Assembly (NCBI RefSeq): GCF_014621695.1
Contig: NZ_CP061281.1
Location: 1,984,001 to 2,048,000 of the forward strand
Length of the DNA: 64,000 nucleotides
Reading direction: 5' to 3'
Source: Streptomyces xanthii
GTDB taxonomy: Bacteria > Actinomycetota > Actinomycetes > Streptomycetales > Streptomycetaceae
Positions within the stretch are counted from its first letter, which is position 1. Each line of letters opens with the position of its first letter. The notes under the pieces were generated by a model. The model was not told where the DNA came from, did no database searches, and saw only the letters and a program-made list of their open reading frames with translations. Both the position numbers and the translations under genes were made by a program. Of the stretch, positions 19,162-37,194 are shown in pieces.

Positions 19162-19185
19162 GGGGGTGTCGGGTCCGTCGGTTCT

Positions 19186-20073
19186 TCAGCGGGTGAGTAC
19201 GTGTGCGGTCGCGGGGGTCTCGGCGCGGAGCACCGCGGCGGCCTGGTGGGCGAGGGCGGCGATGAGCCGGGCCGGCAGCCAGCCCGGGCCCAGCAGGGCG
19301 GCCGCCTGCTCCGGCACCCCGAACCCCGCGTCGCCTCCATGTCCCGGACCAGGCGCCAATTCCTGGACGACCTCGGCGAGTTGAGGGCGCTGCGCAGGGT
19401 CGCGCGAGAGACAGCGCGCGACGGTGGGCCGCAGCCAGGAAGGCAGTTCGTCGCGCTCGGGCATGGTGCTGCCCGTCGCGGCGTACGCGAGGGTCGCGCC
19501 CAGGGCGTACACGTCCCCGAGCGGCCTGGGCATGCCACCGCTCGCCTGCTCCGGCGCCAGCACGCTCGCGTCGACCCCCACCAGACCGCGCCGCTCCACC
19601 CCGTCCGGAGCGGCAGCCCGAACGGCGCCGAAGCCGGTGAGGCGGGGGCCGTCGTGGGCGAGGAGTACGGCGGCGGGCGACACCCCGGCGTGCGTGAGGC
19701 TCTGCCCGTGGATCACGGAGAGCGTCTCGGCGAGGGCGACGGCGAGGGCGCGGACGGTGCGCTCGGGGAGGGGGCCGCCGAGGACGCCCAGGGCGGTGGG
19801 CAGAGGCAGCACCGGCACGTAGGGGCTCGCGTGCCAGGCCCCCTGCCCCGGCCCGGCCAACTCGACCGCCGGCAACACCCAACTCCCCAGCAGGTACCGA
19901 GAGGCATCGGCTTCGGCCATGAAGCGGTGGGGGTCGGTGGTGGGGTGGGGGGTGCTGAGGATGACGGTGCGGGTGGCGTCGGGGGTGCGGGCGATGTGGC
20001 GGAGGGCGGGAGCGGTACGAGCACTCCGGGCGTCCAGGCTGGTCAGGGAGACGTATGGAAGCGCGCCGTACAT
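19186..20073 (-). CDS. Pseudokinase (kinase fold lacking catalytic residues)
   Basis: 295 aa. The C-lobe pattern of PknB-type kinases is clear: LAETLSVIH, APEQAS (about 173), GDVYALGATLAYAATG, RCLSRDPAQRP. The catalytic loop HRDLKPxN is replaced by HAGVSPAA (about 128-135), the magnesium DFG by GFG (147-149), and no clear glycine loop or VAIK lysine is seen. It has no membrane helix. It lies directly upstream of an active-looking kinase and could be its allosteric partner or a scaffold. The reading frame is intact, which argues against a decaying gene. Confidence 0.75.
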   Translation of the reverse strand: MYGALPYVSLTSLDARSARTAPALRHIARTPDATRTVILSTPHPTTDPHRFMAEADASRYLLGSWVLPAVELAGPGQGAWHASPYVPVLPLPTALGVLGGPLPERTVRALAVALAETLSVIHGQSLTHAGVSPAAVLLAHDGPRLTGFGAVRAAAPDGVERRGLVGVDASVLAPEQASGGMPRPLGDVYALGATLAYAATGSTMPERDELPSWLRPTVARCLSRDPAQRPQLAEVVQELAPGPGHGGDAGFGVPEQAAALLGPGWLPARLIAALAHQAAAVLRAETPATAHVLTR

Positions 20074-20207
20074 GTCCGATGATCCCCCTCCGACTCCCTG
20101 CCCTGCAGGGTATCGGGTGGTCGACGGGGTCGGCCGGGCAGTGCCGGAAGCCTGGTCAGCAGGACATCACCCGAGCCTGCCGGCATCACAGTCGGGGGCG
20201 ATACGCC

Positions 20208-21650
20208 CTAATCGGCTGCACTGACGGCATAGGCCAGCCATTGAGCGTCGGGCAGTGATCTCTTCCCGGTCCCCTTGAACTCCTGGTGCCCGATGATCAG
20301 GCGGCCATCCTGGACGGCGACCTCAGCCCCGTCCCCCTTCACTTCGGCCGGAATCGTGAAATAGAAGTATGGGCTCTGCTTTCCGGTCTTCGGATCGAGG
20401 CTGATCAGGGAGTTCGGAGCAAACGTATCCGTCCCGAATTTCATGGCGAGCAGCCGGTTACCGCTCATTCGAATCGGCGAAATCTGCTGGTCAGGCCCTG
20501 CATCGAATTTCACACCGGAGCGTCCGGTCTTCAAGTCGAATGCCACAACCCAGTTGGTGGTGTTACCGAGCTGCTCGCTGGCTTCACCGCTGGTCACGAA
20601 GACCTGACTCTTTGAGACCACTGCTCCATCACACCGGTCGACCCGATCAGGATTGCACTCGACCTTGTAGTGGTTCCCCTCCATGCGGATGTTCGTCAGC
20701 AGGGATCCCTGATCACTGAGGGAGAGAAGGTTCGTCACCGCAAAGTCGCCGGCTTCCACCGCCACGACGGCCGGATCGCTCGAGAGGAAGTAGGCGAATT
20801 TAACCCCTGGGGCGACCCTGTAGGTCCACTTGATCTTTCCGGTCCGCGGGTCGAGTTTGTGCACCAGGAAGTGGTCCTGCCGCTCCTTCTTTTCGAAGCA
20901 GTCCTGACGCAGAAGCAGCGCGCGCCCGCCGGAGAACCCGCCGTCCTTGCACTTCTCGGTTCGCTCCCGCTTCCACAGCGTCTGCCCGTTCGCCATGTCG
21001 AGCCCGGCGGAACCCCTGGACCATGAAGTGACAACGACGCCTCGCGTCATCGTCATTGTCGTGGCCTCCTCGAACACCCCCTGCGTGACGGGAATCTTGA
21101 CCTGCCAGAGCTTCTCTCCAGTGGCGACCCTGAACATCATCACTTGGTTGCACTGGTGATCGCCGGCCGGATCCGTGAACGCTATGGCGGCACGACCATC
21201 GTTGGTCATATCAGGAGATACGGCGCAGATATCGCCTTTGAGTTGAGTGGTCCACGCGTTGGAGCCGTCGTCGATGTTCACAGCGACCAGGCTCGAGGCC
21301 TTCCCCTTGGCCAGAATCTTGTCCGTGGCCCACATCCCGGGCGCGATGAGAGTTTTTCCGGGCGCCAGTTCCTGCTCGACCACCGCGCCTTCGACGTGCC
21401 CGGCGCCGCCCTGCTTGGGCAGCTTCTCGACGGTCTCCCGAAGGTCGTCGGGTGCACCGGACCCCCCGCCTTGGCTGGCGACTTTTGGGGCCGCCTTCTC
21501 CGAACTCGGCCACACCACCCATGCGACCAGCCCCAGCACCAGGGCGAGCACGACAGCCGAACCACCCAGGTACAGCGCCTTGCGTTTCGCACGCGCATCA
21601 GCGGCCTGTCTCGACTGCGTGAACGGCGAGGGCGGCGGCCCGAACGTCAT
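20208..21650 (-). CDS. Membrane-anchored PQQ-type beta-propeller protein
   Basis: 480 aa. A short cytoplasmic head (MTFGPPPSPF..., with an Ala/Arg/Lys stretch) leads to one helix (about 27-48, LGGSAVVLALVLGLVAWVVW). The exported remainder has PQQ-like blades (GEKLWQVKIP, NGQTLWKRER, TGKIKWTYRV). It resembles the extracytoplasmic halves of the two kinases but has no kinase. It follows the esxA terminator on the same strand. Possibly a sensor or scaffold near the secretion machine (inference). Confidence 0.8.
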   Translation of the reverse strand: MTFGPPPSPFTQSRQAADARAKRKALYLGGSAVVLALVLGLVAWVVWPSSEKAAPKVASQGGGSGAPDDLRETVEKLPKQGGAGHVEGAVVEQELAPGKTLIAPGMWATDKILAKGKASSLVAVNIDDGSNAWTTQLKGDICAVSPDMTNDGRAAIAFTDPAGDHQCNQVMMFRVATGEKLWQVKIPVTQGVFEEATTMTMTRGVVVTSWSRGSAGLDMANGQTLWKRERTEKCKDGGFSGGRALLLRQDCFEKKERQDHFLVHKLDPRTGKIKWTYRVAPGVKFAYFLSSDPAVVAVEAGDFAVTNLLSLSDQGSLLTNIRMEGNHYKVECNPDRVDRCDGAVVSKSQVFVTSGEASEQLGNTTNWVVAFDLKTGRSGVKFDAGPDQQISPIRMSGNRLLAMKFGTDTFAPNSLISLDPKTGKQSPYFYFTIPAEVKGDGAEVAVQDGRLIIGHQEFKGTGKRSLPDAQWLAYAVSAAD

Positions 21651-21800: not shown

Positions 21801-22100
21801 TTACTCGAAGTAGCTGGCAGCCTTCTTGTCGCCACCCATGTAGTCGCCACCGGACTGACCGACGACGTGACCGATCTGAGTCAGCGCCGTGTGGATGTCA
21901 TTGGCTTCCTTGTCCCACTTCTGCAGCTTGGTACCGAAGGTGCCCTGAGCCTCACCGGCCCAGTACTCGCGGCTCTTCACCACAAGCTGGCGCAGCTCTG
22001 CCAGGTCTGCCTCAAGAGCCTTCGCCTCGTTGCCGAGCTGCGTCGCCGCCTGGTCGAGTCCGTCGTAGGTTACGAGCAGCCCGTCACCGTTACCGGCCAT
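21801..22100 (-). CDS. esxA: WXG100 secretion substrate EsxA
   Basis: 99 aa, the standard WXG100 size. The helix-turn motif is WAG in SREYWAGEAQG (about 46-48). A C-terminal YMGGD fits the YxxxD/E type VII export signal. It lies 65 bp downstream of a second WXG100 gene, so the two should form the secreted heterodimer. In S. coelicolor EsxA/EsxB are secreted and affect sporulation (established). Which of the pair is called A or B is by convention. Confidence 0.9.
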   Translation of the reverse strand: MAGNGDGLLVTYDGLDQAATQLGNEAKALEADLAELRQLVVKSREYWAGEAQGTFGTKLQKWDKEANDIHTALTQIGHVVGQSGGDYMGGDKKAASYFE

Positions 22101-22165
22101 GTCCTTCTACCTCGTCTCGCTCGTGATGCTGTTTCGACGTGTTCCGATGCCGTGTGCTCCGCAGC

Positions 22166-22498
22166 TCAGTAGCTGCTGAGCGAAGAGGCGCCGTCCGTCA
22201 CGGAAATCTTGTCCACCGAAGCACGAACGTCGTCTTCGGTGGTGTCCTTGAGGTTGCGCGTCTTCGTCATCGCGTCGATGACATCGGCCAGGATCTTGCC
22301 GATGTTCTGCAGAGACTCGTTGATCTCGAACTGCTTCTTGTCGAAGGCAGCCTTACCGATGCCCTTCCACTGGCCCTCAAGGCCGTCAATGACGCCTTGC
22401 AGGTTGTGGACGCGCTTGCGGATGCCCTCGTACTTCTCAGACATCTGCTTCTGCAGTGAGATTACTTGCTGGTCTTCGAGCTTCTGCTGGTTGGCCAT
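22166..22498 (-). CDS. esxB: WXG100 secretion substrate EsxB
   Basis: 110 aa, ATG with AGGAG just upstream. The motif is WKG in LEGQWKGIGKAAF (about 44-46), between two amphipathic helices. No YxxxD is seen at the C-terminus, so export probably relies on the EsxA partner. First gene of the esxBA pair. Confidence 0.9.
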   Translation of the reverse strand: MANQQKLEDQQVISLQKQMSEKYEGIRKRVHNLQGVIDGLEGQWKGIGKAAFDKKQFEINESLQNIGKILADVIDAMTKTRNLKDTTEDDVRASVDKISVTDGASSLSSY

Positions 22499-22618: not shown

Positions 22619-23908
22619 CTATTGACCGCGTCGCGCCCGGAGTACGGCGAAACCGCCGCCGCCGATCACGATGACTGCCGCGACCGCACCGAGCGCAATC
22701 CACAACGTGTTGTTGTCGCTTGAGGATTCCGCTTCCGATCCTGCCGCCTCCGCCGGGACTTCTGAAGCCTTCTGCGTGGGCTGTGACGAGCCTGATGCAG
22801 AAGCGGAGGGCTTGGCGCCGTTCGACTTCTCGGTGGTCTTTGCGGGGCCCCCGTTCTCCTTGGAGAGCGGGTCCGTGTCGGCCGGGCCGGGGTTGTAGTC
22901 CGGGTTCTCCAGAACCACCCGCGGGCGGATGATGCCGTAGCCCAGGTACTTGCTCGGGTCGCTCTTCTTCCACTTGCGGCCGGCCGTGTCGATCAGCGAA
23001 CGCAGGACCTGGTTCGCCGTCCAGTCGGGGTGAGCGGACCAGATCAGGGCGGCGGCACCGGAGGCGACGGCCGTCGCCGAACTGGTACCGCCGTCACGCA
23101 TGCAGTACGCCTTGAAAGACTCGTCACACCAGCCCGGGACGCTGATACCCGGAGCGGCCAGGTCTACGTAATTGCCGTACGAGGAAGTCTTCGAGACCGT
23201 GCCGCTCTGGTCGACGGAGCCCACGCCGACCGCGTACGGGTACGCGGCCGGGTAGTCGATGTGCCCCGACCGCACACCCTCGTTTCCGACGGCCACCATC
23301 ATCAGTTTGCCCTTGGAGGCCGCGTACTTGAGCGCCGCTTCAATGTCAGGGTCGATGAATTCCGAGCCGATGGACATGTTGAGGATCTTGGCGTCGGAGT
23401 CCGCAGCGGCACGGATCGCCACGGCCGGCTCCGCCGTCTTGGCCAGTTCGCCCTTGTCCTTGAGGTCCTTCATCTGAATCCGGTACGGAAGGATCTTCGC
23501 GTCGGGCGCGAGACCCTTCACGCCGCCGCCGGCACCCGTTCCGGCGATGAGCTCAGCCATCGAGGTGCCGTGGCCGCTGAAGTCCTGAGTCGCATGGTAC
23601 GACACCGACTTGGCGACCTCGCTCGTCAGCACCTGCCCCTTGAGGGACGAGGTCTGCGAGTTGACACCCGAGTCGATGACCGCGACCTTGACGCCCTTAC
23701 CTGTGCTGACCTTCCACATCTGATCGGTCTGCATCGCGTCCAGGTACCACTGCTTCGACTGAGCGTCGAACGCCGTCGCGTTGGGAGCGAACCCGACGCC
23801 CATGACAGCCAGCGCACCGACGACCGCCCCGACCGAACGCACACGTCTTACCCCGCGCGCCCGGCCCATCGGGGAACGGTCGGCTCGTCGGCTGATCCCT
23901 GACTTCAT
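22619..23908 (-). CDS. mycP: Mycosin-type subtilisin protease MycP (1)
   Basis: 429 aa. Signal sequence at the N-terminus (VGAVVGALAVMGVGFAPNATA). Subtilase triad: Asp about 79 (AVIDSG), His about 113 (GHGTSMAEL), Ser about 276 (GGTSSATA). A Ser/Pro/Ala-rich linker leads to a C-terminal membrane helix (WIALGAVAAVIVIGGGGFAVL) and basic tail, the mycosin layout. Mycosins are needed for ESX complex stability. It sits between the esxBA genes and two ESX-substrate-like genes on the same strand. Confidence 0.92.
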   Translation of the reverse strand: MKSGISRRADRSPMGRARGVRRVRSVGAVVGALAVMGVGFAPNATAFDAQSKQWYLDAMQTDQMWKVSTGKGVKVAVIDSGVNSQTSSLKGQVLTSEVAKSVSYHATQDFSGHGTSMAELIAGTGAGGGVKGLAPDAKILPYRIQMKDLKDKGELAKTAEPAVAIRAAADSDAKILNMSIGSEFIDPDIEAALKYAASKGKLMMVAVGNEGVRSGHIDYPAAYPYAVGVGSVDQSGTVSKTSSYGNYVDLAAPGISVPGWCDESFKAYCMRDGGTSSATAVASGAAALIWSAHPDWTANQVLRSLIDTAGRKWKKSDPSKYLGYGIIRPRVVLENPDYNPGPADTDPLSKENGGPAKTTEKSNGAKPSASASGSSQPTQKASEVPAEAAGSEAESSSDNNTLWIALGAVAAVIVIGGGGFAVLRARRGQ

Positions 23909-25683: not shown

Positions 25684-26145
25684 TCAGAACCCACCGCCCT
25701 TCGTCGCGTCGTTGGTGCGCTTCGTGCCCTCTCGCTGCGCTTCCTGGGTCCGCTGGAGCTGGTCGACCTCGGTCTGGATCGCCCAGAAGCGCCGCCGCTG
25801 GTCCTCTTCCAGGTTGTCGAAGCCCCGGTGGGCGCCCTGCACGGCGATGCCGATCGCCTCGATCTGCAGGTTGAGCGTCTTGGAGAGCGTGACAAGCTCG
25901 CGGTGCACCGCGTGGTACTGCTTGAACAGGTCCTCGGCCTCAGGGAAGGCGAGCGCGCCCTCGTTGTGCAGCGACGACTTGTTGATCGTCTGCGCGCCCA
26001 CCTTGTTCGGGTTGCCGGCGGATGCGTCCAGGTCACTGAGCACCGTGTTGACGCGCTTCTGGAACGTCGTCAGTGCTTCGCTCGTGACCTCAAGGTTCGC
26101 CGCCCTCGTCGCTGAGGGCCCTCCCACCATGTCTGCTGGAAGCAC
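25684..26145 (-). CDS. Small helical ESX-associated protein
   Basis: 153 aa from a GTG; GGAGG 8 nt upstream supports this start over the ATG at 26130. Predicted almost entirely helical with heptad-like spacing, and no signal peptide or membrane segment. It is tightly coupled (2-bp gap) to the large substrate-like gene, as PE genes are to PPE genes, and may be its dimer partner (inference). First gene of a leftward operon. Confidence 0.65.
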   Translation of the reverse strand: MLPADMVGGPSATRAANLEVTSEALTTFQKRVNTVLSDLDASAGNPNKVGAQTINKSSLHNEGALAFPEAEDLFKQYHAVHRELVTLSKTLNLQIEAIGIAVQGAHRGFDNLEEDQRRRFWAIQTEVDQLQRTQEAQREGTKRTNDATKGGGF

Positions 26146-26688: not shown

Positions 26689-27738
26689 GTGACACGAGAC
26701 CAGCCGCCGTTCGGGGAAGCGCTGCGGGCAGAGCTGGGGGTGCCGGTGGAGAGCGTGGTGCTGGAGAGCAGTCCGCGGTCGCGGGTGTGGCGGGTCGAGC
26801 TCGAGTCCGGGGTGCCGGTCGTGGTCAAGCAGCTCATCGCCGGGCCGGAGGCGGCGGATCGGTACGCGCGTGAGGTGGCGGCACTGCAGATCGCCGGGCG
26901 GGCTCAAGTGGCCGTAGCGCCGAAGGCATTGGGTGTCCAACCCGGCCAGTTGGTCGTGGTGTTGGAGCATCTTGAGCATCGGCCGCCCGCCGAGGACTGG
27001 ATCGTGGGGTACGCGGAGTCCCTGGCCCATCTGCATGCCACCGCGCGCGCCTCGGACGCCGGCGGCTCCCTGCCACGGTGGTCGGCCCCCGGTGAGGCGG
27101 ACGTCGCCGCCTTTCTGCGGCTGGCCGGGGCGCTCGAGGTCCCGGCCGGCGACGAGGTCGCCGTCGAGCTCCGTGCCCTCGTCGAGCGGCTTGAGGAGGC
27201 TCCGGGGACGGCGCTTCTGCATGGCGACCCCTGCCCCGGCAACGACCTCCACACCCCCGACGGGGTCCGGTTCATCGACTTCGAACAGGCCTCGCTGGGC
27301 AGCGGGTTGATGGAGCTGGCCTATCTGCGGATCGGGTTTCCGACGTGCTGGTGCGTGACGCGGGCGTCGGACGCGCTGTTGGCGCGGGCGGAGTCGGCGT
27401 ACCTGTCGGCCTGGCGCGACGCCACCGGTACCGATCCGGCCGAGGACGTCGAGGCGGCGCTGGTCGACGCGTGTGCCGGGTGGGTCCTGCGGGGTGACGC
27501 GCTGGTGCAGCGGGCGGAGCGCGGGGTGACCGACCAGTTGGCTCGGGTGGTGGAGGAGGACTGGGAGTGGGGGACGGTGACGGCTCGCCGGCGGCTCGCT
27601 CATCGGCTGGGGGTCGTTGCGGAATCGGCTTGCGGGCAGGGGCCGTTGAAGCGAACGGCTGAGCTCTGTGGGCGCATGCGCGCCGCCGCGCTCACCCGCT
27701 GGCCCGACCTCGCCCCTGTGCCCGTTCGGCGCCCCTGA
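26689..27738 (+). CDS. Aminoglycoside phosphotransferase-fold kinase
   Basis: 349 aa from a GTG with GGAGG 4 nt upstream. Kinase-like fold: VVVKQL lysine, catalytic loop LLHGDPCPGNDL (HGD about 178-180, Asn about 185) and metal-binding IDFE (about 196). The family phosphorylates small molecules such as aminoglycosides, choline or sugars; the substrate cannot be told. It lies between T7SS genes but points away from them. Its 3' end overlaps the convergent gene by 47 bp. Confidence 0.8.
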   Translation: MTRDQPPFGEALRAELGVPVESVVLESSPRSRVWRVELESGVPVVVKQLIAGPEAADRYAREVAALQIAGRAQVAVAPKALGVQPGQLVVVLEHLEHRPPAEDWIVGYAESLAHLHATARASDAGGSLPRWSAPGEADVAAFLRLAGALEVPAGDEVAVELRALVERLEEAPGTALLHGDPCPGNDLHTPDGVRFIDFEQASLGSGLMELAYLRIGFPTCWCVTRASDALLARAESAYLSAWRDATGTDPAEDVEAALVDACAGWVLRGDALVQRAERGVTDQLARVVEEDWEWGTVTARRRLAHRLGVVAESACGQGPLKRTAELCGRMRAAALTRWPDLAPVPVRRP

Positions 27739-28099
27739 GGACGTACCGGCCGCCCGCGGCCCGCTCCCGTTCGATCTCGTCCCGCAGGTCGGCGAGGTGG
27801 CGCCGGGCCGCGGCCTGCTGCTCGGAGCGTTCGTCCGGCGAGAGCAGCTCGTACTCGCGCAAGCCTCGCGTCATGCGCTCGCCGAGCGCCTCCGCGTAGG
27901 CCGGGATCCGTGCGGCCTCCCGCAACCCGACACGGCCGCGGAGTACTTCACGCGCCATCTCGCGGAGGGGATCGTCGGGCGCCCTCTCGTCGGCAAGGCG
28001 CTGGAGGGAGGCGCGCAGGGCGCGGGCTCGGGCCTGGTCGCCGCCGGTGAGATCCATAAGATCCCGGTCCTGGACGACATCGCGGTGATCTTTGTTCAT
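27692..28099 (-). CDS. Cassette 1 gene A: small charged helical protein
   Basis: 135 aa. ATG at 28099 chosen by similarity to the second copy. The chain is highly charged and helical: DLTGGDQARARALRASLQRL, MAREVLRGRVGLREAARIP, LSPDERSEQQAAARRHLADL. The protein at 29758-30120 shares most of this. No signal or membrane helix. It is the last gene of the leftward C-B-A trio and may bind or chaperone the gene B product (inference). Family not recognised. Confidence 0.65.
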   Translation of the reverse strand: MNKDHRDVVQDRDLMDLTGGDQARARALRASLQRLADERAPDDPLREMAREVLRGRVGLREAARIPAYAEALGERMTRGLREYELLSPDERSEQQAAARRHLADLRDEIERERAAGGRYVLRGAERAQGRGRASG

Positions 28100-28131
28100 T
28101 GCACGTGGCCCTTCAGGAGGAGCCGGCGGAG

Positions 28132-28878
28132 TCACACCGTCGCGGCTGGATGGTCGTACTGCCCGAGCTTGTCGAAGGTGACGAACAGCCCGTAGATCGC
28201 CGCACCGATGCCTTCCACGATGCCGACACCGCCGTTCAGCATCATTTGAACGGCCGCGATGCGCTTGGTGGCGAGGCCCCACTTGCTGAGCATGTCGGTG
28301 ATCTCCAGGGCCGCCAGGCCGTAGCCCAGGAGCGCGCCGGCGCCCGACCACGACAGTGCGGTCCCGGCGGCCATTTCCACCGCCGCGATCAGCAGGCCGT
28401 CGATGATGCCCCCGAGGTACCCCTTGACGGCCTCGAAGGCGGAGTACGCGGCGTGGGTGAGGCGGTCGTACTCGGCGTGGAGCTTCCCGAACTCTTCCTT
28501 CAGTTCGTCGAGCCTGCCGGCCAGCTTGGAGAAGTAGAGGCAGGCGCCGTCCGCGGCCCTTCCGTCCCAGGTCCGGTCGAGTGTCGCGTTCCCCGCCGTG
28601 ATGTTCTGCGACAACGCGCCGGACGCCTGGCCCAACTGGTCCCATACGTCGGCGCACTTGGCGAACCCTTCCCAGTCTCCGGCGATGCTCTCCAGCACCT
28701 CGTCCAGGGGGTTGAAGCCGAACACCGCGTTGTACGCCTCGGTGACCCAGTAGGTCGGGCTGACCAGGTCACCGCAATCGTTGAAGAGGTCCAGACCCCA
28801 CCCTTGCGAGAACTCCTCTGGTTCCGCCGGAGGCCTGAGCGAAGCCGTCGGCTCAGTGACGTCCGAGAATGCAGCCAT
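28132..28878 (-). CDS. Cassette 1 gene B: WXG-like protein with hydrophobic C-terminal half
   Basis: 248 aa. Conserved head FSQGWGLDLFNDCGDLVSPT and YWVTEAYNAVFG. A WDG turn lies in LDRTWDGRAADG. The second half (about 150-240) has several hydrophobic Gly-rich helices (YLGGIIDGLLIAAVEMAAG, GALLGYGLAALEITDML). Close paralogue at 30146-30892. It looks like the N-terminal domain of large T7SS effectors without a separate toxin domain; the hydrophobic part could insert into membranes (inference). Tightly linked to genes A and C. Confidence 0.7.
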   Translation of the reverse strand: MAAFSDVTEPTASLRPPAEPEEFSQGWGLDLFNDCGDLVSPTYWVTEAYNAVFGFNPLDEVLESIAGDWEGFAKCADVWDQLGQASGALSQNITAGNATLDRTWDGRAADGACLYFSKLAGRLDELKEEFGKLHAEYDRLTHAAYSAFEAVKGYLGGIIDGLLIAAVEMAAGTALSWSGAGALLGYGLAALEITDMLSKWGLATKRIAAVQMMLNGGVGIVEGIGAAIYGLFVTFDKLGQYDHPAATV

Positions 28879-28888
28879 CTTCGCGCCC

Positions 28889-29212
28889 TCAGCTCACCGG
28901 TCGTTTGACCCGCGGATACGTCGCATCGAGGTTCGCCGCCACCCGCCTGTCGGTCTTCTCGTAATAGACGGCGCTGCGCCGCAGTTCGGCCGCGGCTCCC
29001 TTGAGGATCAGGACGAGCTGGTCCATGGCCGATGTGACGTCGGTGACCGCCTTGGCATGTGCCCGGGTGACGTGGTTCAGGATCCCCACGTCAGATGTCC
29101 CGACGCGGGTGAATCGCTCGCAGTGGCGCTTGAACTCCACGGCGTCGTCATGGGCTCGCCCCACCTGCCTGGCGTACCCCTCAAGTTCCGAGGGCGTCAC
29201 TCGCAGTGTCAT
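28889..29212 (-). CDS. Cassette 1 gene C: ESX/EspC-like small substrate
   Basis: 107 aa from the ATG at 29212. Starts MTLRVTPSELEGYARQVGR, then a helical body. Near the C-terminus it carries YYEKTD, which contains YEKTD and matches the YxxxD type VII export signal. Paralogue at 30946-31266 with YIKTD. First gene of the leftward trio; probably exported with, or targeting, the gene B product. Confidence 0.72.
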   Translation of the reverse strand: MTLRVTPSELEGYARQVGRAHDDAVEFKRHCERFTRVGTSDVGILNHVTRAHAKAVTDVTSAMDQLVLILKGAAAELRRSAVYYEKTDRRVAANLDATYPRVKRPVS

Positions 29213-29375
29213 TGCTCCGGCCTCTCCTGCGTCGATGTGTACACAGGTAACGGCAGGCCAACTCGCAGGACACGCATGACAGTTCAGCCATTCATGCGGA
29301 GTTGCGGGCTCGTTGTTGACCATGCCGGGAGCGCGGAGGCGGGGCATGGCCACACCGGGCGGTAACGTTCCGTGA

Positions 29376-29732
29376 ATGAAGCATTACGGAGACCGAGAGC
29401 CTCAGGACAGCGGCGTTCGGCTGGGAGATCGCAGCGAGGAGCTGGCCGCGCTCAACGACCGCAGCCGCGGGCTCACCACCACCCTCGTCTGGCTGCTCGC
29501 CTTCATGATCGGTGCGAGCTGTCTGGCGCTCCTCGGGGTGACGATGGTTGGCACCGCAGCTCGGGTCACACCGTGGCAGGTTGGCGCCTCCGTCCTCGGG
29601 CTCGTCGCGGACGGGGGCGTCGTGATCCTGCTCGTACGGTCCCGGCGGCGTGAGAGCTGGCTGCTGCTGCTCGGGGCGGGCGGGCTCGGCCTGGCGTGTT
29701 CGGCCGTGATGGCGTTCGCCGGGACCCTTTAG
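29376..29732 (+). CDS. Cassette 1 gene D: divergent small polytopic membrane protein
   Basis: 118 aa. Polar head of about 32 residues ending ELAALNDRSR, then three to four hydrophobic segments (LVWLLAFMIGASCLALLG, VGASVLGLVADGGVVILLV, WLLLLGAGGLGLACSAVMAF). No clear Shine-Dalgarno; possibly leaderless. It diverges from genes C-B-A. The copy at 31515-31895 has the same layout with lower identity. A role as immunity or receptor protein for the cassette is a hypothesis only. Confidence 0.65.
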   Translation: MKHYGDREPQDSGVRLGDRSEELAALNDRSRGLTTTLVWLLAFMIGASCLALLGVTMVGTAARVTPWQVGASVLGLVADGGVVILLVRSRRRESWLLLLGAGGLGLACSAVMAFAGTL

Positions 29733-29757
29733 CTCCGCGCCACCGCCATGGGCGGGC

Positions 29758-30120
29758 TCAGCGCCTGCGGTCCCGGCGTTCCTGTTCGATCTCCGCCCTC
29801 TGCTCCGCCAGATACGCCCGCGCCGCCGCCTCCTGTTCGCGGCGTTCCTGGGGGGAGAGGCGTTCGTAGGCGCGGAAGCCCTGGGCCGTGCGGTCGCCGA
29901 GGGCCTCGGAGTAGGCGGGGACGCGGGCCGCTTCGCGGAGGCCGATGCGGCCGCTGAGCACCTCGCGGGCCATGTCGCGCAGGGGGTCGCCGGGGGCCAG
30001 GCCCTCGGCGAGCCTCTGGAGGGATTTGCGCAGCGAGCGGGCCCGGGCCTGGTCGCCGCGGGTGATGTCCATCAGGTCCGCGTCGCCGATCCGGCGCTCC
30101 TCGCGGTCGTCTGCGGGCAC
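29758..30120 (-). CDS. Cassette 2 gene A: small charged helical protein
   Basis: 120 aa from the GTG at 30120, with AAGGAG 9 nt upstream. Shares DLMDI-RGDQARARSLRKSLQRL, DMAREVLSGRIGLREAARVP and LSPQERREQEAAARAYLAEQ with cassette 1. Starts 26 bp after gene B of the second copy. Ends 26 bp from the convergent gene D of copy 1. Family not recognised. Confidence 0.65.
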   Translation of the reverse strand: MPADDREERRIGDADLMDITRGDQARARSLRKSLQRLAEGLAPGDPLRDMAREVLSGRIGLREAARVPAYSEALGDRTAQGFRAYERLSPQERREQEAAARAYLAEQRAEIEQERRDRRR

Positions 30121-30145
30121 GGGTGCAACTCCTTGCGGATGAGCG

Positions 30146-30892
30146 TCAGATCGAGGGTTCCGGGTGGTCGTACGCGCCGACCTCCGGGAAGGTGGACAGG
30201 GAGCCGTAGAGGGTGGCGGCGATCGTCTCGATGACGCCGACGGCTCCGTTGACGATGGCCTGGGCGTTGCCGAAGGCCTCCGTGGCCTTGGCCCACAGGC
30301 GCAGCATGTTGGCGACCTCCAGGGCGGCGAGGCCGTAGCCGACCGCCGCGCCGATGCCCGTCCACGACAGCAGCGTGCCCGCCGAGATCTCGATCGCCGT
30401 GATGAGCAGGCCGTCGATGATGCCGCCCAGGAAGCCCTTGATGGCCTCCGCGGTGGAGTACGCGGCGTGCGACAGGTGGTCGTACTCGGTCTTGAGCTTG
30501 TCGAACTGGTCCTTGACCTCGTCGAGTTTGCCCGCGAGTTCGAAGAAGTACTTGTAGGCGGCGTCGCCGGCCCGGCCGTCCCAGGTGATGTCGAGCGTCT
30601 TGTTGCCCGCCTCGACGTTGTCGGAGACCGCGGCGACGGCCTTGCCGAACTGGTCCCAGACGTCACCGCACTTGGCGAAGGACTCCCAGTCGCCCGCGAA
30701 CCACTGCACGACCTCGTCGAGGGGGTTGTAGCCGAAGACCGCGTTGTACGCCTCGGTCACCCAGTACGTGGGGCTCATGAGGTCGGCGCAGTCGTTGAAG
30801 GTGTCGAGGATCGGGCCCTGGGAGAACTCCTCCGGCGCCTTCGGTGCGTGCAGCAGTGACGTCGGTTCCTTGACGTCCGTGAAATCAGACAT
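30146..30892 (-). CDS. Cassette 2 gene B: WXG-like protein with hydrophobic C-terminal half
   Basis: 248 aa, identical in length to its cassette 1 paralogue. Shares EFSQGPILDTFNDCADLMSP, YWVTEAYNAVFGYNPLDEV and a WDG turn (LDITWDGRAGDA). The hydrophobic region includes FLGGIIDGLLITAIEISAG and GYGLAALEVANMLRLW. Conservation of the hydrophobic half between copies suggests it is functional rather than incidental. Confidence 0.7.
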   Translation of the reverse strand: MSDFTDVKEPTSLLHAPKAPEEFSQGPILDTFNDCADLMSPTYWVTEAYNAVFGYNPLDEVVQWFAGDWESFAKCGDVWDQFGKAVAAVSDNVEAGNKTLDITWDGRAGDAAYKYFFELAGKLDEVKDQFDKLKTEYDHLSHAAYSTAEAIKGFLGGIIDGLLITAIEISAGTLLSWTGIGAAVGYGLAALEVANMLRLWAKATEAFGNAQAIVNGAVGVIETIAATLYGSLSTFPEVGAYDHPEPSI

Positions 30893-30945
30893 GGGGATTG
30901 CCCCTCGGCTTTCTCTTCGACCTGTACCGACAGCCCGTACGCGGC

Positions 30946-31266
30946 CTACTTGGGGCGCTTCACCAGCGGGTACGTGGCGTCGGCCTTCGCGGCGACCGAC
31001 CGGTCCGTCTTGATGTAGTACGTCGCGGACCTGCCGAGCTCGCCGTCGGCCGCCTTGAGGATGCTCTGCAGCTTGTCGAAGGCCGAGTTCACCTGCTGCA
31101 CCGTGGCCGTGTGCGTCGTCAGGACGAGGTTGATGAGGCCCTCGTTCGAGGCCCCGACGGTGGTGTGACGGCCGCAGTGGTTCTTGAACGCCACCGCGTC
31201 CTCCGCCGCGCGGCCGAGCTGCCGCGCGTAGCCCTCGAGATCCGAAGGCGTGACCTTCAGGTTCAT
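30946..31266 (-). CDS. Cassette 2 gene C: ESX/EspC-like small substrate
   Basis: 106 aa. Begins MNLKVTPSDLEGYARQLGR and carries YIKTD (YxxxD export motif) near the C-terminus, then ATYPLVKRPK. Same order and spacing as cassette 1: gene B starts 53 bp further on. Confidence 0.72.
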   Translation of the reverse strand: MNLKVTPSDLEGYARQLGRAAEDAVAFKNHCGRHTTVGASNEGLINLVLTTHTATVQQVNSAFDKLQSILKAADGELGRSATYYIKTDRSVAAKADATYPLVKRPK

Positions 31267-31514
31267 GTGCACCTCATCCTCGTCCCCCACCGGGGTGCCG
31301 CCATGCGGAGACGCAGGCTACCCCAGCCCCTGATCGATCCCCAGTTTGCGCAAGCGAGCGAGCACACAAGCTTCACAGAGGAGTGCGGAGCGGATTTCAG
31401 CTTGAGTCGTATGGGGTGTTTTCGGCCAGGCTGGGGGGTGGCCGGAGTGGCCGTTCCGTTATGTGATCTTGCGGGTCCGTTCGCACCCCGCAGGGACTGG
31501 GTAGGGTGCGCGTC

Positions 31515-31895
31515 GTGACGAACGACAAGCACGGGAACACGAATTTCAGCCGGGCCGGTACGCGGCTGCCGGGCGACCCGGCGGCGCCCGGGTCGGCGGA
31601 ATCGCTGGCTCAGGTTGACGATCGCAACTGGCGCATCACGTTTCTGCTGACCGCCACGATCGCTGTGCTGGTCGCCGTCCGCGCGCTGATGGTCGTCGGA
31701 CTGACAGTGTCGGGCGTCGGGGCCGGTTACCCGGCGCCGGTCGTCGTGGCGTCGATCGCCGTACTCGTCGTGGTGGCGGTCACCGCCTGGCTGCTCGTAC
31801 GGGCGCGCAGAGCCCGCCGCTGGGCGCCGCTCGCGACCGCGCTGGGCGTCTGCCTGGCCGGGCTGATCGCGATCGCCGTGGCCGGACGCCTCTGA
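31515..31895 (+). CDS. Cassette 2 gene D: divergent small polytopic membrane protein
   Basis: 126 aa from a GTG with AGGG about 9 nt upstream; a GTG three codons earlier is possible. Polar head ending SLAQVDDRNW, then about three hydrophobic segments (ITFLLTATIAVLVAVRALMV, PVVVASIAVLVVVAVTAWLL, ATALGVCLAGLIAIAVAG). It matches the layout and position of gene D of cassette 1, but sequence similarity is low outside the layout. Confidence 0.6.
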   Translation: MTNDKHGNTNFSRAGTRLPGDPAAPGSAESLAQVDDRNWRITFLLTATIAVLVAVRALMVVGLTVSGVGAGYPAPVVVASIAVLVVVAVTAWLLVRARRARRWAPLATALGVCLAGLIAIAVAGRL

Positions 31896-32146: not shown

Positions 32147-32632
32147 ATGGCATGGGACGAGTGGGAGCAGCTGAAGGCGGACGCGGCCGGGCGGCAGACG
32201 ACGGGGATGCGGTTGAACCGTGCCGACGGGGAGCCGCCGATGCCGTCGCAGACCGGTGATCTCCAGGTCAAGAACGGGGACCTGGCGAAGATCGGGTCGC
32301 ACGCGCACACCCTCTACAACCAGCTGTGGGACAAGGCCCGCGTCGCCGTGCCGACCAGCGACACGGCGGCCGGTGACCTGAGCGGGCAGGGGTTCGCGCT
32401 CGGCGGCGGGCTCAAGCACGTCTCCGACCGCTGGGACGAGCAGCTGAAGTCGCTGATGGACGCGTGCGCGCAGATCTCGAACCACATGCAGACCACGAAG
32501 AAGGTCCACGCGGGCGACGACCACTACATCTGGCGGCAGATGAGCAGCATCGCCTCCCTGGACGCCGGGTTCGACGAGCGGGTCGGCGAGCCGGGCGAGA
32601 AGAACCCGGTCTACGACACGAAGAAGAAGTGA
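32147..32632 (+). CDS. Helical T7SS-associated protein
   Basis: 161 aa, ATG with GGGGAGG 7 nt upstream. Contains KNGDLAKIGSHAHTLYNQLW and a long amphipathic region (VSDRWDEQLKSLMDACAQIS), the pattern of WXG100-like antiparallel helices. No signal peptide. It directly precedes the large effector-like gene at 32790, so it may be its partner or adaptor (inference). Confidence 0.65.
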   Translation: MAWDEWEQLKADAAGRQTTGMRLNRADGEPPMPSQTGDLQVKNGDLAKIGSHAHTLYNQLWDKARVAVPTSDTAAGDLSGQGFALGGGLKHVSDRWDEQLKSLMDACAQISNHMQTTKKVHAGDDHYIWRQMSSIASLDAGFDERVGEPGEKNPVYDTKKK

Positions 32633-32789
32633 CGGCCGCGTCGGCAGAACCGGGTGGGGCCGTCGTGTCGTCCGATGGTCCGAGGTCCTCGTGAACGAGG
32701 GCCGGCGGCGGGGCCGCGGGGCGGCGGCGCCCTCCCCTCGTCATCAGCGCTACGGGACGTAACAGAAGTAGAGGAAGAGACGGTCGGTC

Positions 32790-35072
32790 ATGGATCTCGA
32801 CGCACTGCGCTTCGCCAACTTCACGTCGCTCGACGAAGCGGTGGCCGACTGGAAGCTGCTCGTGCAGCATCTCGTGGACCTCAAGAAGGACGCGGAGGAC
32901 GGGCTGCACAAGGCGGCGAACCAGGCCAACTGGGCCGGGGTGAACGCCCAGGTGTCCAAGGAGTTCATCGGCAAGACGGCCGGTGAGTTCGCGGACGCGC
33001 ACACGCAGGCGACGACCGTCCACAACATCCTGAGCGACACCCGTGACGAGCTCAAGCAGCACAAGAAGGACCTCGAGGCCGCGATCGACCGCGGACTGAA
33101 GAAGAACCTGACCGTCATGGACACGGGTGGCGGCGGATTCACCGTCACCATGAACATCCATCCGGACCGCGCCGCGAAGGGGACCACGGTCCCCGAGCAC
33201 AGCGAGAGCGACGTCACCGCTCTGCGTGACGAGGTGCAGGGCATCCTGCAGAAGGCCACCGACAGCGACGCCTCGGCGGCCAAGGTGCTGAAGGCCGTCG
33301 CGGACACCGCGCGGATGGGCTTCAGCGACGCCTCGTACAAGGACCGTGACGAGGCCGCGGACGCGATCGAGACCGCCGAGGACCTGGCCGCGATCGCGGG
33401 GAAGAAGCCCGAGGACCTCACGCCCGCGGACTTCGACAAGATCAACGCGGGTCTGTCGAAGTACAAGGACGACCCACTGTTCGCCGAGCGGTTCGCGACG
33501 CAGCTCGGCCCGAAGAAGACGCTGGAGTTCTGGGAGGGCATCAGCGACCCGCAGGTGAACATGGAGGTCGGCAGCGAGCGCCTGGACCAGCTCGGTGACC
33601 TCCAGCGGAACCTGAGCATGACGCTCGCCACCGCGACGCGGAGCGACACGGCGGCCATGGCCGGCTGGAAGAGCGACATGATCAGGCTGGGCGACCAGAC
33701 GATCGGCCCCAACGGACTCGGCCCCGACGGTTTCCAGGTCATGAGCAACCTGATGCGGGCGGGCGACTACGACGACGACTTCCTCAAGAGCTACGGCACC
33801 AAGCTCATGGAGACCGAGCGCAAGCTCACAGGCGACGGCGAGCACGACAACCTGAAGTGGCGCCCGGGCTTCAGCACGCCCTGGCTCAACCGCATGGGCG
33901 AGGACAGCGGCGCCGATCCGCTCACCGGCTTCCTCAAGGGACTGTCCAACTCCCCCGACGCGGCCACGGACTTCTTCAACGAGGAGTACCTGCCGAAGGA
34001 CGGCGACGACCGCAAGGAGCCCGTCGACAACTTCAAGTACCTCTTCGAGGACCGCAAGTGGCCCGAGGAGCAGAACCTGGACGGCGACGACCTGCACACG
34101 GGCCAGAACAACCTGGCGCTGGCGCTGGAGGCGGCGACGACCGGGCACCCGGCGGGCGAGCTGCCCACGGCGGACACCCCGGCGCACACGGCCGACCAGG
34201 CCAGGCTCATGCGCGAGCTGGTCGACTCGGTCTCCGAGGATCCGGACCGGCTCAAGGACAACGGCTACATGTCCGACAGCTTCGGCCAGATCGGCGCCGA
34301 GTACCTGCCGGACATCCACCGCGCGATGGCCGACGGCCCCGCCGTCGCGGGCGACGACTCCGGCTGGGACAAGCTGTACCCGCTGGCGGGCGAGGACGCG
34401 AAGCTCGACCACAACGCCGTGGCCCGCTTCCTGGTGACGACCAGTCAGAACCCGGAGGGGTACGCGGCGTTGAACGTCGGCGAGAAGGCGTACACGGCCA
34501 GCCTCATGGACTACCACCTCAACCCGGACCTGCCCGAGGACCAGCGCTACCCGCACGACGCCAAGGACACGATCACCAGCCTGTCGCGCAAGTCCGGTGA
34601 GTTCAACGGGCTTCTCGCGCAGGGGCGTCAGGAGGCCGTGCTCGGCCCGGCCGGCGAGAAGGACGGCGACTTCGACCACGCGGTCAGCCAGAAGAAGAAC
34701 GTCATCTCGGGCATCGTGGGCACCGGCGTCGGCATCGGGACGAGCTTCATCGCCTCGCCGGTCGTCGGCGCGGCCGCCGGAGGCGCGGCGGGCACCGTCA
34801 CCTCGGTCGTCATGGAGGCCTTCTTCAAGGACGACGAGGGGCACTACCGCTCCGAGGCCGGACACGACGTCGCCACGCGGTGGGAGACCATCAAGGACTC
34901 GGCCACGAACGCGAACTACGCGGCGGCGAACGAGGCGGCCAAGGCGCACCACGCGAACTACACCGACCAGATCGACACGTGGGTGAGCGAGGGCACCGCG
35001 ACCGGCTTCAACGACGCGAACACCGACATCCACGCCATGGCCAAGGACCTCGACACCGAGATCCCCAGCTGA
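32790..35072 (+). CDS. Large effector-like protein with WXG100-like head
   Basis: 760 aa. Residues 1-110 look like an extended WXG100 domain: MDLDALRFANFTSLDEAVAD, then NWAGVNAQVSKEF (WAG turn). A long charged middle (about 150-620) has no motif I recognise. A Gly/Ala-rich hydrophobic segment (about 637-680, SGIVGTGVGIGTSFIASP, GAAAGGAAGTVTSV) precedes a polar tail. Streptomycetes carry many such WXG-headed proteins beside ESX loci. Probably exported; activity unknown. Follows its likely partner gene by 157 bp. Confidence 0.75.
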   Translation: MDLDALRFANFTSLDEAVADWKLLVQHLVDLKKDAEDGLHKAANQANWAGVNAQVSKEFIGKTAGEFADAHTQATTVHNILSDTRDELKQHKKDLEAAIDRGLKKNLTVMDTGGGGFTVTMNIHPDRAAKGTTVPEHSESDVTALRDEVQGILQKATDSDASAAKVLKAVADTARMGFSDASYKDRDEAADAIETAEDLAAIAGKKPEDLTPADFDKINAGLSKYKDDPLFAERFATQLGPKKTLEFWEGISDPQVNMEVGSERLDQLGDLQRNLSMTLATATRSDTAAMAGWKSDMIRLGDQTIGPNGLGPDGFQVMSNLMRAGDYDDDFLKSYGTKLMETERKLTGDGEHDNLKWRPGFSTPWLNRMGEDSGADPLTGFLKGLSNSPDAATDFFNEEYLPKDGDDRKEPVDNFKYLFEDRKWPEEQNLDGDDLHTGQNNLALALEAATTGHPAGELPTADTPAHTADQARLMRELVDSVSEDPDRLKDNGYMSDSFGQIGAEYLPDIHRAMADGPAVAGDDSGWDKLYPLAGEDAKLDHNAVARFLVTTSQNPEGYAALNVGEKAYTASLMDYHLNPDLPEDQRYPHDAKDTITSLSRKSGEFNGLLAQGRQEAVLGPAGEKDGDFDHAVSQKKNVISGIVGTGVGIGTSFIASPVVGAAAGGAAGTVTSVVMEAFFKDDEGHYRSEAGHDVATRWETIKDSATNANYAAANEAAKAHHANYTDQIDTWVSEGTATGFNDANTDIHAMAKDLDTEIPS

Positions 35073-35089
35073 CCCCAGTCGTCTCCCGG

Positions 35090-35656
35090 ATGATGGACAG
35101 ACACATGCACACCTTTCCGTTCGGTGGCCTCCGCGCGGCCGCACTCGTCGTCGGAGCGGCGCTGCTCGGTGCCTCGGCCGTCAGATGCTCGTCGTCCGAG
35201 CCCGAGCCCGAGCGCGTGTACGCGGTGCCGGCGGACCTGTGCGGGACACCGGTCTCCGGCAGCGCGCTGACACCTCTGCTGCCTGCCGGCGAGAAGGCCG
35301 CGCAGGAGCCGTCGGAGGCGGTCGGCGTAAAGCGGTGCCGGCTGACGGTCGACGGCGAGGTGGCGCTGTCCACGTCCGTGGAGAAGCGCGCGGCCGACGT
35401 GTCGGCCCAGGACGTGGCCCAGTCCGCGCAGGGCGTCGACCCCACGGACGCGGCCGCGGACGGCGGCCGCTACGTGTACGGGAAGACGGGTGCGGTCGGC
35501 CGCGTGGAGTGTCCGGCGTCCTCGTCCGGGGAGGCGGACCGGGCGATCTGGGTGACGGCGCGCGTCGCCCAGGAGGCCGGCCCCGAGGACCTGCTCGCCT
35601 TCGTCAAGGCCTACGCCGCGTCGGTGGCCCGCACCGACGCCTGCGCGAAGCTGTAG
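35090..35656 (+). CDS. Exported protein, possible lipoprotein
   Basis: 188 aa; alternative ATGs at 35093 and 35105. N-terminal signal sequence (LRAAALVVGAALLGASAVRC). The cysteine after SAVR is a poor lipobox (Arg before Cys), so it may instead be cleaved by signal peptidase I. The rest is a small soluble domain with several cysteines and no recognised motif. Starts 17 bp after the effector-like gene and is probably co-transcribed. Confidence 0.65.
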   Translation: MMDRHMHTFPFGGLRAAALVVGAALLGASAVRCSSSEPEPERVYAVPADLCGTPVSGSALTPLLPAGEKAAQEPSEAVGVKRCRLTVDGEVALSTSVEKRAADVSAQDVAQSAQGVDPTDAAADGGRYVYGKTGAVGRVECPASSSGEADRAIWVTARVAQEAGPEDLLAFVKAYAASVARTDACAKL

Positions 35657-35695: not shown

Positions 35696-35914
35696 TCAGT
35701 GCGCCGCGAGCCTCAGCATGTCGATGCCCTGCCAGATGCCCAGCCCCGCCATCACCAGCAGGCAGACGCGGCCCACCACGACGCTCGACGTCGTGAGTTC
35801 CTCGCCCGACGGGTAGGTGCGGCTGCGCAGCGCGCGCCACCGGTCGGCCGGCACACAGGCCATCAGGATCAGCAGCGCGGCCAGGACGAACAGGGTGACC
35901 GCCATGCCGGTCAC
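35696..35914 (-). CDS. Small two-helix membrane protein coupled to mycP
   Basis: 72 aa from a GTG that overlaps the mycosin stop (GTGA). Two hydrophobic segments (MAVTLFVLAALLILMACVP and SVVVGRVCLLVMAGLGIW) flank a short basic loop. The tight overlap suggests a small accessory of the secretion complex; family not recognised. Confidence 0.65.
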   Translation of the reverse strand: MTGMAVTLFVLAALLILMACVPADRWRALRSRTYPSGEELTTSSVVVGRVCLLVMAGLGIWQGIDMLRLAAH

Positions 35915-37194
35915 GAGCCCGCCCCCGTACCCGTGTCCGTCCGTGCCTTGCGGCGCCGTGCGTCCCGTACCGCCACCGCCGTGCCGCCCAGGCCCGCCAC
36001 CGCGATCAGGCCGCCGACGAGGACGTACGTGGCCAGGCGGGCGTTGCGCTCGTCCGCGGTCTCCGTGAGAGGGACCGGGAGGATCTCCGGGGGCTTGGCG
36101 TCGATGGCGTCCGGGTCCGCGTGCGGGGCCTGGATCGGGTTCTTCGGGTCCGCGATCTCGGTGACCGCGCGGACCGGGTCGACGACGCCCCAGCCGACGA
36201 GCCGGTCACGGCCGTTGATGGAACGCTCGGCGGTCTGCTCGATCTGGGCGACGACCTCCTGGGCCGTCCAGTCCTTGTGGTGCTGCTTGATCAGGGCCGC
36301 GACCGCCGCGACGTACGGCGCCGAGAAACTCGTGCCGTTGTCGGAGCAGTGGCCGCCCAGGGGGACCGTGGAGATCATGTCGACGCCCGGCGCGGCCACG
36401 CCGACGTCGTCGTTCGACTGCGAGAAGGCGGCGCGCTCGTTGTTGCGGTCCGACGCGGCGACCGCGAGGACGCCCTTGTACGAGGCCGGGTAGGTCTTCT
36501 TCACGTTGCCGCCGAGGCCGTCGTTGCCCGCGGAGGCGACGACCACGATGTTCTTCCGCAGGGCGGCGTTGACCGCGGTCTCCAGGGTGGAGCCGGGCTC
36601 CAGGGCCTTCTCCGTGTCCTGGGAGATGTTGATGACGTCGGCACGCTGGCGGATCGCGTGGTTGATCGCGTCCGCCAGGTCGTCGGAGTTGCCGTGGCCC
36701 TCGGCGTCGTTCTGCTTGATCGGGATGATCGTCGCTTCCGGGGCGAGGCCCACGAAGCCCGTGCCGCTCGCCTTGCGCGCGGCGATGATGCCGGCGACGC
36801 GGGTGCCGTGCCCGACGGTGTCGGTGGTGCCCTTCGCGTTGCCGCGGCCCTCGATCTTCTTGCCCTTGTCGTCCTTCGGCGGCAGGTAGTTGCCGCCCGA
36901 GGCCACGTCCACGGCGCTCTTCAGCTGCGGGTTCTTGACGTCCACGCCCGTGTCGATGACCGCGACGCGCACACCCTTGCCGGTGGCGCTCTGCCACAGG
37001 TCGTCGAGGTTGACGCGCTGCAGCGCCCACGGCCGGCCCGCGTACTTCTTGCCGCCGAACGTGCACTGTCCGCTGTCCGCCGCCGCCGGGGCCGCCGGCA
37101 GGGCGAGCACGGCCATCGACGCGGTCAGCGCGGTGGCCGCGGACAGGGCGGCCGGCCGCGCGGTGCGGCGGGCCCAGTTGCTGGTGATCGCCAT
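35911..37194 (-). CDS. mycP: Mycosin-type subtilisin protease MycP (2)
   Basis: 427 aa. Signal sequence (ALTASMAVLALPAAPAAA). Triad: Asp about 81 (AVIDTG), His about 129 (VGHGTRVAGI), Ser about 289 (NGTSFSAP). A C-terminal helix (YVLVGGLIAVAGLGGTAVAV) and basic tail anchor it. Pairs with eccB 49 bp upstream; mycosin-core coupling is typical of ESX loci. It differs from the other mycosin in this window at many positions, so the two are not a recent duplication. Confidence 0.93.
   Translation of the reverse strand: MAITSNWARRTARPAALSAATALTASMAVLALPAAPAAADSGQCTFGGKKYAGRPWALQRVNLDDLWQSATGKGVRVAVIDTGVDVKNPQLKSAVDVASGGNYLPPKDDKGKKIEGRGNAKGTTDTVGHGTRVAGIIAARKASGTGFVGLAPEATIIPIKQNDAEGHGNSDDLADAINHAIRQRADVINISQDTEKALEPGSTLETAVNAALRKNIVVVASAGNDGLGGNVKKTYPASYKGVLAVAASDRNNERAAFSQSNDDVGVAAPGVDMISTVPLGGHCSDNGTSFSAPYVAAVAALIKQHHKDWTAQEVVAQIEQTAERSINGRDRLVGWGVVDPVRAVTEIADPKNPIQAPHADPDAIDAKPPEILPVPLTETADERNARLATYVLVGGLIAVAGLGGTAVAVRDARRRKARTDTGTGAGS

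What the first reader, a model, noticed from the sequence alone, without database searches (positions are those of the whole stretch)
27692..31895. Tandem duplicated four-gene cassette inside the T7SS region
Two copies of the same four-gene block sit back to back: C (ESX/EspC-like, 107/106 aa), B (WXG-like, 248 aa in both), A (charged helical, 135/120 aa) on the minus strand, and D (small polytopic membrane protein) diverging. Genes A, B and C are clearly paralogous in sequence; D matches in position and topology. Seen directly: order, spacing, lengths, shared motifs. Inference: a mobile or selected module that works with the ESX machine, perhaps effector plus targeting partners plus protection.
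Basis: partly seen in the sequence, partly recalled or inferred. Interest (0 to 1): 0.74.

Follow-up and report, generated by a model that had tools for sequence, protein, structure and literature searches.

The report
Tandem type VII secretion substrate cassettes
Two old copies of a four-gene unit sit side by side in a Streptomyces type VII secretion locus; the unit is an accessory package that most likely encodes a two-part secreted protein, its helper and a small membrane partner, whose activity is still unknown.

Summary
The tandem cassette is real. A, B and C are 62-70% identical between copies; the diverging D genes are homologous too, at 32-36%. The copies are old (dS 0.7-1.1), and D evolves fastest (dN/dS 0.80 against 0.29-0.38). 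A relative's ESX locus has 529 bp where the window has 6 kb (cassettes plus an APH gene), so presence is variable; gain or loss is not decided. B occurs in 16 of 150 Streptomyces genomes; 20 of 21 B places have A beside them. Of 28 B places, 13 lie within 40 kb of EccB or EccC, 11 of them between the two, far above chance; 15 do not. C and B are naturally fused in some Streptomyces and Micromonospora; C carries YxxxD, B carries WxG, and a fusion is predicted to fold most like EspB, the single-chain PE-PPE substrate of ESX-1, although no PE, PPE or EspB sequence model matched. Best explanation: an accessory ESX substrate cassette with exported pair C+B, cytoplasmic partner A (also beside other WXG100_2 proteins) and membrane partner D, perhaps protective. 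Export, killing and immunity are inferred. One relative has lost most of C-B but keeps D.

The parts
27692..28099 (-). A1, 135 aa, soluble charged helical protein; cytoplasmic partner (inferred)
   Evidence: 69.5% identical to A2 over 105 aa; family alignment; AlphaFold model of A2 pLDDT 90, no PDB match of note
28132..28878 (-). B1, 248 aa, WXG100_2/PPE-like protein with WxG at residue 104 and a hydrophobic hairpin tip at 155-194
28889..29212 (-). C1, 107 aa, EspC/PE-like hairpin with a YxxxD motif
   Evidence: PF10824 27.7 bits against a cut-off of 23.5; YxxxD
29376..29732 (+). D1, 118 aa, small polytopic membrane protein diverging from C1
   Evidence: 3 hydrophobic segments by a simple hydropathy count; homologous to D2
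29758..30120 (-). A2, 120 aa
30146..30892 (-). B2, 248 aa, WxG at residue 104, hydrophobic tip 154-193
   Evidence: PF25547 25.8 bits, just under the cut-off of 27
30946..31266 (-). C2, 106 aa (114 aa from an upstream GTG), YxxxD
   Evidence: PF10824 21.8 bits, below the cut-off of 23.5
31506..31895 (+). D2, 129 aa, small polytopic membrane protein diverging from C2
26146..32146 (.). Segment present in the window and absent from the matching ESX locus of relative G016, which has 529 bp there; holds the APH-family gene 26740-27738 (+) and both cassettes

Best explanation
Each cassette is an accessory type VII (ESX) substrate unit. C (hairpin with YxxxD) and B (helical protein with WxG) pair like a PE-PPE dimer, in effect an EspB split into two genes, and are exported by the host's ESX machine. 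A stays in the cytoplasm and binds B or the C-B pair before export, as a targeting factor and shield of B's hydrophobic hairpin tip. D sits in the membrane and works with, or protects against, the exported pair. Shown here: the gene unit, the old tandem duplication, variable presence, frequent residence inside ESX loci, natural C-B fusions, export-signal motifs, a predicted EspB-like fold, co-variation of the genes. Inferred: export, A binding B, D's role, and any toxic activity (my estimate for a membrane-active antibacterial effector with D as immunity is about 0.3).
Confidence: 0.64

Rival explanations
1. Non-toxic EspB/PE-PPE-like surface or secretion accessory: exported C-B builds a structure at the cell surface, with D as its membrane anchor or adaptor and A as chaperone; no antagonism.
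For: Closest fold is EspB, which forms heptamers proposed to be channels (PMC9811218, passages). B has no separate toxin domain and keeps a C-terminal Y[DEN] in 38 of 38 database proteins. 11 of 28 places lie between EccB and EccC. Streptomyces ESX has been linked to development (PMC8401907, passages).
Against: Patchy distribution (16 of 150), residence also at unlinked sites (15 of 28), and the fast-changing membrane partner look more like a conflict module than a developmental one.
Confidence: 0.25
2. Membrane-active antibacterial effector with two layers of protection, like S. aureus EsxX (soluble ExiAB in the cytoplasm, polytopic ExiCD in the membrane): B's hydrophobic hairpin inserts in membranes, A shields it before export, D gives immunity. 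This is the strong form of the best explanation.
For: Hydrophobic 40-residue tip, mean hydropathy 1.36, about 3 charged residues, over 62 B proteins; small polytopic gene near 30 of 44 B genes against 11% of 164 controls; D outlives a deleted C-B in G085; EsxX precedent (PMC12744356, abstract and passages); alpha-pore-forming toxins among Foldseek rows.
Against: A strict glycine zipper is not conserved: 44 of 79 against 28.3 expected by shuffling. The same domain occurs in toxins with their own warheads. G085 is a single case.
Confidence: 0.3
3. Warhead-less remnant: B is the translocation domain of a WXG100_2 polymorphic toxin that lost its C-terminal toxin.
For: B shares PF25547 weakly with Gln_amidase and RHS toxins of Streptomyces.
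Against: Length (244-252 aa in the 24 aligned rows) and C-terminus are conserved; dN/dS between the copies is 0.38; most of the fusions shown keep a similar end.
Confidence: 0.07

Closest known systems
EspB of mycobacterial ESX-1 (single-chain PE-PPE substrate, with chaperone EspK)
   Different: No sequence-family match; C and B are separate genes in 26 of 44 distinct B genes; the tip is hydrophobic over about 40 residues; A is 70-195 aa in the gene calls and matched no chaperone fold in the searches run here; a membrane gene D is added.
LXG toxins with Lap1/Lap2 partners (Firmicutes T7SSb)
   Same: Substrate plus small partners, one carrying an FxxxD motif likened to YxxxD/E (PMC9600955, abstract).
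   Different: No LXG domain match, no C-terminal toxin domain, and no WXG100 fold detected for A.
EsxX/ExiAB/ExiCD, TelE/TipE, TspA/TsaI membrane-depolarising T7SSb toxins
   Same: Hydrophobic glycine-rich segment; for EsxX a soluble partner and polytopic membrane proteins, for TspA a polytopic membrane protein (PMC12744356, PMC10434224, PMC9484751; passages).
   Different: The glycine zipper is not conserved here; the segment is an internal hairpin, not the C-terminus; toxicity untested.
Actinobacterial WXG100_2 (PF25547) stand-alone and polymorphic-toxin proteins
   Same: Shared domain (P0012 27.1 bits against 27); a small YxxxD/E gene and an A-family gene beside several of them.
   Different: B begins with a different N-terminal stretch, and the profile comparison with the other stand-alone family is weak (hhalign probability 24).

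Membership tests
T7SS/ESX substrate | Bipartite export signal: YxxxD/E after a helical hairpin in one partner, WxG in the other | tested here: met
   C alone 22 of 22, fusions 17 of 18; WxG 38 of 38 database B, 22 of 24 B from loci, 16 of 18 fusions
T7SS/ESX substrate | Exported in an EccC-dependent way | not testable with these tools
   no secretome data
T7SS/ESX substrate | Genes linked to an ESX locus more often than chance | tested here: met
   13 of 28 B places (11 of 23 genomes) within 40 kb of EccB or EccC, 11 between them; rough chance 7e-14, places not independent
T7SS/ESX substrate | Host genome carries an ESX system more often than expected | tested here: inconclusive
   16 of 16 B+ and 28 of 28 A+ have EccB, but 136 of 150 genomes do (p 0.19 and 0.048)
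EspC family (PF10824) | Pfam gathering score | tested here: inconclusive
   C1 27.7 bits passes 23.5; C2 21.8 does not
WXG100_2 (PF25547) | Pfam gathering score | tested here: inconclusive
   B2 25.8 and B1 17.4 below 27; relative P0012 27.1 above it
PE/PPE or EspB family | Match to PE, PPE or EspB sequence models | tested here: not met
   none listed at E <= 1 for B or C
PE/PPE or EspB family | PE-PPE fold with WxG/YxxxD end and helical tip | tested here: inconclusive
LXG toxin operon | LXG domain and C-terminal toxin domain | tested here: not met
   no LXG or toxin model in Pfam for B1 or B2 at E <= 1; NCBIfam lists only a far sub-threshold xenorhabdolysin score for B2, 12.8 against 125 bits
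Glycine-zipper depolarising toxin | Conserved (G/A/S)xxxGxxxG or GxxxGxxx(G/S/T) motif | tested here: not met
   44 of 79 B proteins, 28.3 expected after shuffling
EspG/EspK-type chaperone (for A) | Shared fold | tested here: inconclusive
Membrane immunity protein (for D) | Protects against the cognate effector | not testable with these tools
   only position, topology, fast divergence and one case of retention

The most novel reading that the evidence does not exclude
An accessory actinobacterial module, often carried inside ESX loci, in which a split, EspB-like PE-PPE pair is itself a membrane-active antibacterial weapon: the helical tip that chaperones hold in PE-PPE proteins has become a long hydrophobic inserting hairpin, A holds it before export, and D protects the producer. 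This would make PE-PPE-type proteins weapons between bacteria outside mycobacteria.
Probability: 0.28. Interest if true: 0.75.

Novelty: new variant of a known kind. Interest (0 to 1): 0.5.

Why it matters
As far as I recall, little is known of what Streptomyces exports through its ESX system beyond EsxA/EsxB. If the model holds, it gives a defined, small, clonable substrate unit with natural one-gene and two-gene versions, a candidate general partner protein (A) shared with other WXG100_2 substrates, and a link between PE-PPE architecture and bacteria without a mycomembrane. It would make the question of what actinobacterial T7SS does between bacteria directly testable in harmless laboratory strains.

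Tried and rejected
A wrong turn, mended at the end: from stretches of about 10 kb on each side I had concluded that only 1 of 39 B loci lies near Ecc genes. Searching whole genomes for EccB and EccC and measuring distances showed that 13 of 28 B places sit in or beside large ESX loci, mostly 14-24 kb from the nearer of the two genes. The ESX link is therefore stronger than one search suggests, and I raised the confidence of the best explanation from 0.60 to 0.64 for that reason and trimmed the remnant rival from 0.08 to 0.07.

Plasmid and phage carriage: B2 has no tblastn match at E 1e-5 in 72,556 plasmid or 50,697 phage records, so no known vehicle. Known defence systems: no PADLOC match for A-D. 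Recent duplication: rejected, since dS is 0.7-1.1 and B2 is closer to another genome's B (82%) than to B1 (62%). Whether the two copies are sisters is unresolved: in the tree both fall in one starred clade of 10 rows, with a long B1 branch; C1 and C2 are each other's nearest in the 15-cassette set, while A1 and B1 are marginally nearer to L013. Insertion against deletion at the G016 site: not decided. D as an EccD relative: NCBIfam EccD 22.9 bits (cut-off 94.95) for D2 only; judged a hydrophobicity effect. A as DnaB-binding or sigma-like: scores below cut-off or insignificant. Profile against solved sequences: only marginal WXG100 (ESAT-6-like) hits for C-B (E 0.005-0.017) mixed with unrelated helical proteins, and one hit at E 1.3 for A. 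B against the other stand-alone WXG100_2 family: hhalign probability 24, not shown homologous beyond the shared Pfam domain.

Limits of the counts: genes in fetched loci come from a simple caller of mine that misses or truncates some genes; A genes at L048 and L050 seen were missed, so 37 of 44 is a lower bound. Four loci fetched twice were dropped before counting. The gene-gene correlations do not remove shared ancestry, several D entries there were chosen by position, and a few A, B and C entries are truncated. The genome-contig scan was pattern-limited (20 loci). The chance estimate is rough.

Papers: PMC9811218, PMC10434224, PMC12744356, PMC11217815, PMC8401907 and PMC9484751 were seen as passages (PMC12744356 also as abstract and outline); PMC9600955 as abstract and outline; others only as search listings. 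I found no paper describing this cassette in the listings of nine searches of an open-access library that lacks most subscription journals.
Full report
WHAT IS THERE. The window is part of a Streptomyces-type chromosome (G000, 8.35 Mb; the window is G000:C1:1984001-2048000) and holds an ESX locus with EccD 8300-9721, EccC 10124-14098, EccB 37244-38773, EccE 39230-40408, two subtilases 22619-23908 and 35911-37194, and two WXG100 proteins at 21801-22498. Inside it are two head-to-tail copies of A-B-C (minus strand) and D (plus strand), with a 2014-2015 bp period. All four genes are homologous between copies. The copies are old: dS is 0.91 (A), 0.73 (B), 1.13 (C) and 0.94 (D), and dN/dS is 0.29, 0.38, 0.32 and 0.80. 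D is therefore the fast-changing member.

IT IS ACCESSORY. In relative G016 the ESX locus has largely the same order, but only 529 bp separate the homologues of 25684-26145 and 32147-32632, where the window has 6,001 bp with the APH-family gene and both cassettes; nucleotide similarity resumes at window 32146. Whether the window gained or G016 lost the segment is not decided. In 150 genomes of the genus, B occurs in 16 (E <= 1e-10), A in 28 (E <= 1e-5) and EccB in 136. In 392 genomes, close B relatives (E <= 1e-60) occur in 10, and only the window's genome has two at that threshold. In a phylum-wide sample A was found in 3 of 396 genomes, the window's own included.

WHERE IT LIVES. Taking the 28 B places (23 genomes), 13 places in 11 genomes lie within 40 kb of EccB or EccC, and 11 lie between those two genes on one contig; the nearest distances run from 6.4 to 23.6 kb. 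A generous chance estimate is about 1e-13, though relatives are not independent. The other 15 places are elsewhere: the third locus of the window's own genome is 283 kb from EccB, and the copies of G243 and G090 are far from it. Named examples away from ESX include a site beside a ribosomal-protein operon in S. prunicolor and S. xylophagus (L012, L013). My earlier count within about 10 kb on each side (1 of 39 loci) missed most of the linked cases because these ESX loci are large.

IT IS A UNIT. 20 of 21 B places have A within 1.5 kb (read by eye; the exception is G090:C1:3898918). Among 44 distinct B genes in fetched loci, C is fused in 18 and fused or adjacent in 39, A is near 37, and a small polytopic membrane gene is near 30, against 11% of 164 control genes from the same loci. 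Two layouts recur: D diverging from C-B-A, as in the window, and A then a C-B fusion then a small membrane protein; in L075 and L076 A lies on the other strand. Micromonospora has membrane gene, C-B fusion, A. Pairwise identities of A, B and C across 15 cassettes correlate at r 0.82-0.89, and with D at 0.56-0.64 over 13 cassettes; none of 2,000 permutations reached these values. This shows that they are inherited together, not what they do.

A HAS WIDER USE. A-family genes also lie directly beside another WXG100_2 protein, with its own small YxxxD/E gene in several loci, and beside or near EccC in several genomes. Relatives of that WXG100_2 protein include long proteins with a glutamine-deamidase toxin or RHS repeats. 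This suggests that A serves WXG100_2-type substrates generally. It also argues against reading B's hydrophobic hairpin as a warhead by itself, since the same Pfam domain occurs in proteins that carry separate warheads.

A NATURAL DELETION. In G085 (L063) the C-B gene has lost its C part and most of B in frame, leaving A joined to the last part of B, while D is intact and 82 of 91 residues match D of G113, which has the full unit at the matching place. P0071 is an A protein that begins with B-like residues (seen in the alignment). Keeping D after losing the effector is what an immunity gene would do, but one case is weak.

MECHANISM. Most likely C and B are exported together as a split PE-PPE-like pair, A targets and shields them inside the cell, and D acts in the membrane. 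The boldest version makes C-B a membrane-active weapon and D its immunity protein, as with EsxX and its soluble and membrane protectors (PMC12744356). A strict glycine zipper is not conserved, and toxicity and export are untested. I put the general model at 0.64 and the weapon version at about 0.3.

VERDICT. The reading as a unit tied to the ESX machine is supported; movement by a mobile element and an effector-plus-protection role are not shown. New variant of a known kind.

Noticed in passing
L010:6915-9627 (G000:C1 about 2304.9-2307.6 kb): A third, unlinked relative of the cassette in the same genome: A, two C-B fusions in tandem (the first lacks the hydrophobic tip and YxxxD) and a 71-aa membrane protein.
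   Followed up: partly
window 26740-27738: APH-family phosphotransferase gene inside the segment that G016 lacks; its 3' end overlaps A1 convergently.
   Followed up: no
window 32147-35656: A 161-aa WXG-like gene, a 760-aa protein without Pfam match of note (weak PADLOC LeoB-like scores) and a 183-aa protein; homologues of these lie beside the S. prunicolor cassette at another chromosomal site (L012).
   Followed up: no
window 22619-23908 and 35911-37194: Two subtilase (mycosin-like) genes in one ESX locus.
   Followed up: no
window 14751-21650: Serine/threonine kinase genes with PQQ beta-propeller repeats, followed by a shorter kinase-like gene (19186-20073) and a PQQ-repeat protein.
   Followed up: no
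L063:8695-9526: In-frame natural deletion joining A to the end of B with D kept intact.
   Followed up: partly
G007:C1:7736427-7792629: Another ESX locus with two B places about 15.5 kb apart, both between EccC and EccB, and further A-family genes: multiple but not adjacent copies.
   Followed up: partly
L079-L097, L061, L062, L064: Diverged A-family genes in other Streptomyces islands, several with EccC-type genes, a P-loop protein and repeated small genes.
   Followed up: partly
L078:14576-18580: 1334-aa WXG100_2 protein with a glutamine-deamidase toxin domain, in the same 20-kb stretch as two A-family genes.
   Followed up: no
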